A DNA stretch of 64,000 nucleotides from Alphaproteobacteria bacterium (GTDB lineage: Bacteria; Pseudomonadota; Alphaproteobacteria; CAAHEQ01; UBA3637): assembly GCA_015062245.1 (NCBI GenBank), contig SUVA01000001.1:76856-140855 (forward strand). The letters run 5' to 3'. A program made the position numbers and the translations under genes. Below the pieces are notes generated by a model. That model was not told where the DNA came from, did no database searches, and saw only the letters and a program-made list of their open reading frames with translations. Numbering within the stretch: the stretch's first letter is position 1; each line of letters opens with the position of its first letter. Of this stretch, positions 30,548-31,854 are shown one piece after another.

Positions 30548-30617
30548 TTTTATATCCTTTCCTTGAATACATATGTATATAGGATAACTTTCCCCAAATT
30601 GCAAGAGGTAAGAAAAC

Positions 30618-30640
30618 AGCCCCTTGAATCCCAAGGGGCT
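30618..30640. terminator. Hairpin AGCCCCTTGAATCCCAAGGGGCT (bidirectional terminator-like)
   Basis: Near-perfect inverted repeat, almost identical to 48287..48309. Confidence 0.7.
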
Positions 30641-30747
30641 GAGGTTTAATTTGTAAATGTGCCCGTCCGGGGACGGCGGGCACAAAGTAAATAAGTCTGC
30701 CACAAGGGCAGACTTAAAGTAAAAAAGTAATTTTAAAAGCGGGAAGA

Positions 30748-31854
30748 CTACTCACAGAGGGCGGAGTAGTAGTAGTGGTTGAGACGGTCGTTGTAGAAGA
30801 CAGCACCGGAAGAAAGATTCACGTAGAAGGCGGAACAGGAATTATTGTTTGCGCCGGATGTACATTCCCCTGTAAGCAAATCACAACTGACCGCATCCGT
30901 CACCCAATAATAATCAGACCCCAGTTTATCTTTCAAATCCGACCAATTAACTGTTCCGCACTCACTTCCTTCACAATAGGCATAATCCTGATAACCGTCG
31001 GTGATTCCTAAATCCGCAAGAGATACAAGGGATTTATTGTGCGCTTTACAAAAGTTCACCGCACTCCACCAGCTTATATAGTCGGCAGAGACCGTATATT
31101 CATCAGTGTCAAGCGATTTTGTGGTTGCAACGGCGCATTGACCCGTGAAGTTATTATAACAGGCCGAATCGTCTTCTAAAAAATCAGCATTGATTGCGCA
31201 ATAGCACTTCTCTCCGCCACCATTTGTTTCACACCAATCATCACAATCGGCGTTTTTAGAACATGTCCCATCTGTTGTTTTTTCGGCGATACAATTACCC
31301 GCAACGCCACAAGTTGTTCCTTCGGGACATTCCACACCTTCACAAGCTGGGTCTTTTTCGGTTCCACTTCCCCCTGTTGGGCTTTTTTCGCCTTCGGCTG
31401 GATCTGTTGCCAGGTTTTTGTAATAGGTGATTTCAGCATTCTTTTTACCTTCGCTACTACCTGCTTTACACTCTATCCCCTGAATTATACCGCCTTTTTT
31501 TAATTGGTCGCAAACCGCAGAATCCACATTTTCAATTGTAATAGAAAATCCTTTTCCATCCAAAGCTTCGGTTGTACTTGGGGAAAATGTTCCATAACTG
31601 CTGTTTCCAAATGATGTGATTGTTTGGGGTAAATTCCCATCGTTGGTCATGGCCTGTGCCGATATGGTGGTGGCCAGCATACTGGCCTGATGTAATAACT
31701 CATTCGCTTTGTGTTTTTTCATGGCGACACCATAGCCGTACACGCCACCTACGGACAAAACGCCCACGATGGCCAACACGCCCAGCATTTCAACCATAGA
31801 ACGCCCCTTTTGGCTTCTTTTATAATTTTTGTTTGTTTTATTTTTTACCATCAT
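30748..31854 (-). CDS. Type-IV-pilin-like protein with Cys-rich middle and C-type-lectin-like C-terminus; candidate DGR target
   Basis: N-term KNYKRSQKGRSMVEMLGVLAIVGVLSVGGVYGY (G^RSMVE, E at +5, hydrophobic helix); C-term WWSAVNFCKAHNKSLVSLADLG...YYWVTD...CSAFYVNLSSGAVFYNDRLNHYYYSALCE. Confidence 0.75.
   Translation of the reverse strand: MMVKNKTNKNYKRSQKGRSMVEMLGVLAIVGVLSVGGVYGYGVAMKKHKANELLHQASMLATTISAQAMTNDGNLPQTITSFGNSSYGTFSPSTTEALDGKGFSITIENVDSAVCDQLKKGGIIQGIECKAGSSEGKKNAEITYYKNLATDPAEGEKSPTGGSGTEKDPACEGVECPEGTTCGVAGNCIAEKTTDGTCSKNADCDDWCETNGGGEKCYCAINADFLEDDSACYNNFTGQCAVATTKSLDTDEYTVSADYISWWSAVNFCKAHNKSLVSLADLGITDGYQDYAYCEGSECGTVNWSDLKDKLGSDYYWVTDAVSCDLLTGECTSGANNNSCSAFYVNLSSGAVFYNDRLNHYYYSALCE

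What the first reader, a model, noticed from the sequence alone, without database searches (positions are those of the whole stretch)
30748..30840. Candidate diversity-generating retroelement (DGR) variable region at the 3' end of a pilin-like adhesin gene
The last ~30 codons (TGT TCC GCC TTC TAC GTG AAT CTT TCT TCC GGT GCT GTC TTC TAC AAC GAC CGT CTC AAC CAC TAC TAC TAC TCC GCC CTC TGT GAG) switch abruptly to C-ending codons (TAC, AAC, CAC, GAC, TCC), whereas the rest of the gene prefers TAT/AAT. That is what adenine-directed mutagenesis of AAC-rich template codons would leave (NNC codons). The protein context FYVNLSSGAVFYNDRLNHYYYSALCE at the end of a C-type-lectin-like domain matches DGR target layout. 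No reverse transcriptase or template repeat is visible in this window, so any DGR would act from elsewhere.
Basis: partly seen in the sequence, partly recalled or inferred. Interest (0 to 1): 0.85.

Follow-up and report, generated by a model that had tools for sequence, protein, structure and literature searches.

The report
Orphan hypermutated tips of pilin-lectin genes
The end of this gut-bacterium surface-protein gene is a spot once rewritten by a known mutation machine (a diversity-generating retroelement), one of at least 14 such spots in the genome, but the machine itself is missing from the assembled genome, as it also is, or is broken, in several relatives.

Summary
Observation confirmed: the last ~30 codons of the minus-strand prepilin-like gene 30748-31854 are NNC-rich (20/29 pyrimidine-ending codons end in C, against 79/199 in the body). 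No other stretch of ORFs >=200 aa in the window meets the same threshold.

Interpretation largely supported. This is a DGR variable region (VR) by descent. A complete avd-TR-RT-VR cassette in a sister genus (G012) has a TR that matches it (75%, E=1e-11). The window VR and its closest paralogue differ at 16 first or second codon positions and no third positions; 13 of 14 aligned differences fall on adenines of that TR (p=3e-7). The domain folds like a C-type lectin.

It has no RT, Avd or TR in the assembly, and none of 11 congeneric genomes has an RT or Avd. Relatives with large VR sets carry a truncated RT (G034), an RT remnant (G029) or a stop-interrupted RT (G027). So the core was probably lost recently, or lies in an assembly gap: 23 of 54 contig ends fall in this gene family. 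Orphan DGR targets are known in Treponema denticola. Present-day activity is unproven.

The parts
30748..31854 (-). Prepilin-like adhesin gene (start ATG ~31854, stop 30748-30750): N-terminal K-G|RSMVEMLGVLAIVGVLSVGG prepilin-like signal, Cys-rich middle, C-terminal C-type-lectin-fold domain
   Evidence: ORF; N_methyl PF07963 15.8 bits, below its 21.2 cut-off; 44 related stretches in own genome
30751..31140 (-). C-type-lectin-fold domain (130 aa)
   Evidence: AlphaFold2 pLDDT 69.5, pTM 0.69; the 50 listed Foldseek PDB hits are essentially all C-type-lectin or C-type-lectin-like domains, best 6jli E 1.3e-3 prob 1.00; sequence-profile hits are all C-type lectins or lectin-like receptors, best E 0.045
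30751..30850 (-). DGR-type variable region (VR): NNC codons in a fixed frame A(Y/F)xVNLSSGAVxxNxRxxx...(Y/S)ALCE
   Evidence: C-bias; TR of G012 matches window 30728-30824 at 75%, E 1.1e-11; differences to paralogue C8 lie on TR adenines, 13/14
30728..30747 (-). 3' flank TCTTCCCGCTTTTAAAATT, IMH-like, shared with the TRs and VRs of sister genera (TTCCCAGCTTTTGAA in the G012 TR)
30692..30716 (.). Perfect 10-bp inverted repeat with 5-nt loop, ~32 nt after the stop codon; could be a DGR target hairpin or a transcription terminator
   Evidence: BPP-1-type target hairpins have 7-10 bp stems, 4-nt GRNA loops, 4-34 bp from the VR (PMC3240598); this loop does not fit

Best explanation
The 3' end of this prepilin-like lectin gene is a diversity-generating-retroelement variable region. 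An error-prone DGR reverse transcriptase (type B in this report) with Avd copied an AAC-rich template repeat, changed its adenines at random, and the cDNA replaced the homologous 3' end of the gene by retrohoming. This left NNC codons at the presumed ligand-binding face of a C-type-lectin fold. The same machinery wrote at least 14 VRs scattered over the genome, which are probably alternative surface-adhesin tips. Shown: VR-TR homology to an intact cassette in a sister genus, adenine-specific differences between paralogues, the lectin fold (by prediction), and the absence of RT, TR and Avd from this assembly. Inferred: the retrohoming itself, the surface display and the ligand-binding role. Open: whether the core was lost from this lineage or sits in an assembly gap.
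For: Complete cassettes in sister genera: G012 avd (NF033474 E 1.8e-11), TR, RT and a secreted lectin target with VR; 9 of 10 TR/VR mismatches are at TR adenines. G037: 16 of 17. The G012 TR hits the window VR at E 1.1e-11. Window VR vs C8 paralogue: codon-position differences 8/8/0 in the VR against 66/64/112 in the rest (p=1e-4 for position class; 0/31 third-position differences in the VR vs 112/320, p=7e-6). 13/14 differing sites are adenine in the G012 TR, where 36/119 sites are A (p=3e-7). At least 14 NNC-rich gene ends in the genome. Lectin fold. The type B RT's only PDB match at E<=1e-10 is 8ub7, a 328-aa reverse transcriptase, which from my own knowledge is the Bordetella-phage DGR enzyme. 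A near-identical type A cassette in two genomes of the family shows DGR action: 28 of 29 VR differences at TR adenines against 14 differences in the other 5,659 nt.
Against: No RT, Avd or TR in the own assembly. VR lengths differ between paralogues (9 nt between window and C8), which retrohoming alone does not make. Two genes (C26a and C13 end) share a nearly identical VR, so duplication or recombination also moves VRs without rewriting them. The TR used for the adenine test comes from another genus.
Confidence: 0.9

Rival explanations
1. Relic reading (a refinement of the best explanation): the DGR core (RT, Avd, TR) was lost from this lineage, recently on the evolutionary scale, and the 14 or more VRs are a frozen adhesin repertoire now reshuffled only by duplication and recombination.
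For: RT and Avd are absent from all 11 genomes of the genus, although G006 and G010 also hold many NNC-rich VRs. Decayed RTs in VR-rich relatives: truncated before the catalytic motif in G034, C-terminal remnant behind a pilin in G029, in-frame stop in G027. C26a and C13-end share one VR. Treponema denticola precedent: 8 of 17 isolates keep 2-6 targets with no RT or TR (PMC4891356).
Against: Window and C8 VRs show no third-position differences while the gene body has 35%, so the last rewriting was recent. The assembly has gaps at this gene family.
Confidence: 0.5
2. Active reading (the other refinement): the core cassette is present in the cell but fell into an assembly gap or on an unbinned short contig.
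For: 23 of 54 contig ends lie within 1 kb of a pilin or lectin gene, and the shortest contig seen is 6.2 kb. Cassettes in relatives sit between pilin or lectin genes with only about 2.5 kb of unique sequence. The genome is 94% complete.
Against: Also missing in G006 (96% complete) and G010, the other VR-rich species of the genus.
Confidence: 0.4
3. The RT acts in trans from a phage or plasmid that is not part of the bin.
For: A type A cassette contig is 99.3% identical in two genera, so cores may move (or that contig is misbinned).
Against: The best viral relatives of the type B RT are only 45% identical, and no plasmid or phage record reaches 60%.
Confidence: 0.07
4. Not a DGR product: local codon bias, diversifying selection or gene conversion among paralogues.
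For: Paralogues clearly recombine or duplicate.
Against: Selection on residues does not fix third positions at C. Conversion would not leave 16 first/second-position differences with no third-position ones. Neither predicts coincidence with adenines of a TR in another genus.
Confidence: 0.03

Closest known systems
Treponema denticola TvpA-type DGR targets, including isolates without RT and TR (PMC4891356)
   Same: Several scattered target genes with VRs per genome, and genomes that retain targets but no RT or TR, read there as leftovers of core loss
   Different: There: up to 7 targets, often predicted lipoproteins, of the FGE-sulfatase type. Here: at least 14 targets (28-48 lectin-domain matches in some relatives) on prepilin-like proteins of gut/rumen Alphaproteobacteria
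Bordetella phage BPP-1 DGR (Mtd, bRT, Avd)
   Same: RT of the same clade, Avd, adenine-specific TR/VR differences, VR at the end of a C-type-lectin fold (shown in the sister-genus cassettes)
   Different: Chromosomal pilin-like or secreted targets, different lectin sequence family ending YALCE/YALCR, TR extends past the stop codon, core absent here
avd-TR-RT-VR cassette of Alphaproteobacteria bacterium RGIG3755 (G012, contig JAFTEW010000015.1; L102/L180)
   Same: VR frame AYNVNLSSGAVSNYTRYANSYALCE against window AFYVNLSSGAVFYNDRLNHYYYSALCE; DNA of its TR is homologous to the window VR
   Different: Its cassette target is a small secreted 125-aa lectin protein, not a prepilin fusion; it has an intact core and extra standalone TRs

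Membership tests
Complete diversity-generating retroelement | DGR-clade reverse transcriptase in the genome | tested here: not met
   No RVT_1, no type B RT at E<=10 in the own assembly; assembly 94% complete
Complete diversity-generating retroelement | Template repeat matching the VR except at adenines | tested here: not met
   A-tolerant pattern with 3 mismatches finds only the VR itself; TR homology search and AAC-run pattern find only VRs or chance sites
Complete diversity-generating retroelement | Accessory protein Avd (usual, not universal) | tested here: not met
   NF033474 none in 11 congeneric genomes; found in G012, G030, G027
DGR target gene / variable region | Homology to a TR of a DGR with RT | tested here: met
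   G012 TR, 75%, E 1.1e-11
DGR target gene / variable region | Variation confined to template adenines | tested here: met
   Between paralogues, against a TR from another genus: 13/14; weaker for C7-C19 (19 at A, 15 not)
DGR target gene / variable region | VR at the C-terminal end of a C-type-lectin-fold domain | tested here: met
   By sequence profile and predicted structure
DGR target gene / variable region | IMH followed by target hairpin | tested here: inconclusive
   Conserved YCCCGCTTTTAAAA-like flank and 10-bp inverted repeat, but 5-nt non-GRNA loop and terminators look alike
DGR target gene / variable region | Hypervariability among strains or reads | not testable with these tools
   One genome per species; no reads
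Type IV prepilin-like protein | Prepilin signal G|xxxxE plus hydrophobic helix | tested here: inconclusive
   GRSMVEMLGVLAIVGVLSVGG seen; PF07963 15.8 bits and TIGR02532 13.1 bits, both below cut-off

The most novel reading that the evidence does not exclude
In a family of small-genome gut Alphaproteobacteria, DGRs wrote large scattered repertoires (14 to about 48 genes) of hypervariable prepilin-lectin adhesins, and the writing enzyme was then repeatedly lost or broken, leaving standing repertoires that go on being shuffled by recombination.
Probability: 0.35. Interest if true: 0.72.

Novelty: new variant of a known kind. Interest (0 to 1): 0.56.

Why it matters
DGR surveys of metagenomes look for VRs next to an RT; Roux et al. 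state that their approach misses remote targets (PMC8144416). This family shows that VRs can be numerous and scattered, with the RT absent, decayed or unassembled, so repertoires of this kind would be undercounted. The fusion of the DGR-diversified lectin to a prepilin-like N-terminus suggests diversified pilus or pseudopilus tips in host-associated bacteria. The mix of intact, broken and missing cores in related genera makes the fate of VR repertoires after RT loss directly testable.

Tried and rejected
TR search with A-tolerant codes found only the VR itself. The AAC-run pattern hit in contig C2 is ATP-synthase genes, chance; the G006 hit is a Thr/Ala repeat. The weak RT hit in G009 (E 0.049, 34 residues) is not an RT. 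Phage or plasmid origin of the type B RT: only distant relatives. RTs in other genera are of at least two DGR types; type A (G013, G021, G035) has a different TR ending (CGCGCCCCGATTTGC, ARPDLC) and does not match the window VR. The TMCGCNNTNTGT scan gave about half chance sites. Two literature searches returned nothing on pilin-type DGR targets in Alphaproteobacteria.

Full report
What was checked. The codon switch is real. The gene is on the minus strand with its stop at 30748-30750. In its last 30 codons 20 of 29 pyrimidine-ending codons end in C, against 79 of 199 in the body, and no other stretch of any ORF >=200 aa in the window meets the same threshold.

The protein. The gene starts most likely at 31854 with a prepilin-like N-terminus (GRSMVEMLGVLAIVGVLSVGG; PF07963 below cut-off), has a Cys-rich middle and ends in a domain for which the 50 listed structural neighbours are essentially all C-type-lectin or lectin-like domains (model pLDDT 69.5; Foldseek; sequence profile hits langerin-type lectins at E 0.045). 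The genome has 44 stretches related to this protein and 19 lectin-domain matches.

A repertoire, not one gene. At least 14 of these genes end in the same kind of NNC-rich tail, nearly all closing with T(A/C)C GCN NTN TGT: contigs C7 (window), C8, C19, C3, C4, C26 (two), C23 (two), C2, C17, C9, C16 (which ends differently) and the end of C13. Pooled over 13 of them, C makes up 244/341 in the tail and 984/2423 in the body (p=4e-27). It is not general to the pilin genes: 0 of 10,426 windows outside the gene ends reach the threshold.

Link to a real DGR. Relatives in the same family carry DGRs. Two RT types occur. Type A (G013, G021, G035) has classic TR/VR pairs with mismatches at A. Type B (G011, G012, G030, G037, G038) lies near pilin genes. 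In G012 and G030 the order is Avd (NF033474, E about 1e-11), TR, RT, then a small secreted lectin target. The G012 TR reads GTGAATCTTTCCTCAGGTGCGGTCAACAACAACAACCGTAACAACAACAACTACGCCTTGTGTGAGTAG. It differs from its own VR at 10 sites, 9 of them A, and G037 has 16 of 17. The window VR reads GTGAATCTTTCTTCCGGTGCTGTCTTCTACAACGACCGT...TCCGCCCTCTGTGAGTAG. The G012 TR finds it in a genome search at E 1.1e-11 and 75% identity. The type B RT's only PDB match at E<=1e-10 is 8ub7, a 328-aa reverse transcriptase, to my knowledge the Bordetella-phage DGR RT.

The decisive test available here. The window gene and its paralogue on contig C8 are about 75% identical by codon alignment, with differences at codon positions 1/2/3 of 66/64/112. 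In the VR the counts are 8/8/0 (p=1e-4; third positions 0/31 against 112/320, p=7e-6). The 3' flank is nearly identical for about 100 nt after the stop. Fourteen differing VR sites can be aligned to the G012 TR; 13 are adenines in that TR, although only 36 of 119 sites are adenine (p=3e-7). Gene conversion or selection alone does not give this; adenine mutagenesis does. Against the third group member (C19) the signal is weaker (19 at A, 15 not), as expected for an older pair.

DGR action in the family. A 5.8-kb type A cassette is 99.3% identical between G013 and G021. Outside the VR there are 14 differences in 5,659 nt; inside the 119-nt VR there are 29, of which 28 at TR adenines. The G021 contig may be misbinned; either way it shows recent adenine-directed change.

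The missing core. The own assembly has no RVT_1 match, no type B RT at E<=10, no Avd and no TR by three different searches. The other ten species of the genus also lack RT and Avd, yet G006 (12 of 14 sampled ends) and G010 (4 of 4) have NNC-rich VRs. In other genera, VR-rich genomes have broken cores: G034 has an RT truncated before its catalytic motif, G029 (48 lectin matches, 6 of 6 sampled NNC-rich) has only a C-terminal RT remnant behind a pilin, and G027 an in-frame stop. This favours loss. Against that, 23 of 54 contig ends of the own genome lie in this gene family, so a cassette between two pilin genes could be missing from the bin, and the zero third-position changes between window and C8 say that rewriting was recent. 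Two genes (C26a and C13 end) share nearly the same VR with a break at the IMH-like end, so duplication and recombination also act.

Comparison. Multiple remote DGR targets, and targets left without RT and TR, are described for Treponema denticola (8 of 17 isolates; PMC4891356). Multiple VRs per DGR are common (28.6% of DGRs in PMC6642488). Large surveys would not see remote targets (PMC8144416). I therefore file the feature as a DGR target/VR, not as a complete DGR, whose defining RT and TR were tested and not found here. What is unusual is the number of targets, the prepilin fusion, and the repeated core decay across related genera.

Limits. The RT and TR absence rests on draft MAGs. No reads or strains of this species were available. 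Surface display and ligand binding are inferred. The in-frame stop of the G027 RT may be a sequencing error. The counts in relatives are from sampled gene ends, not a full census.

Noticed in passing
L093:4710-10487 (G013) and L094 (G021:C15): A 5.8-kb type A DGR cassette is 99.3% identical in genomes assigned to two genera, with identical TR but 29 VR differences (28 at TR adenines): recent transfer or misbinning, and a natural record of recent DGR activity.
   Followed up: yes
L279 (G029:C2 about 90440-90679): C-terminal remnant of a type B DGR RT just behind a pilin-lectin gene in a genome with 48 lectin-domain matches and NNC-rich VRs sharing a GGCCAG 3' flank.
   Followed up: partly
L104/L282:1349-2161 (G034:C1): Type B RT truncated before the catalytic YxDD motif, directly downstream of a pilin-lectin VR gene; the genome has 28 lectin matches.
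   Followed up: partly
L143 (G012:C16:2309-2415) and L147 (G012:C32:2179-2220): Standalone AAC-rich template repeats with no RT seen beside them; possibly read in trans by the single RT of that genome.
   Followed up: no
L060 and L241 (G000:C26 and C13 end): Two pilin-lectin genes with 96% identical ends and nearly the same VR, diverging just at the IMH-like element; points to recombination or duplication without rewriting.
   Followed up: yes
L242 (G000:C25:78673-78894): A lectin-domain gene end with a strong T-ending bias (3/22 C), the reverse of the VR pattern; perhaps an undiversified or decayed member.
   Followed up: no
window 30617-30716: Three successive inverted repeats follow the gene; the first after the stop is shared with the C8 paralogue, and CAGCCCC...GGGGCTG hairpins follow many VR genes of this genome.
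   Followed up: no
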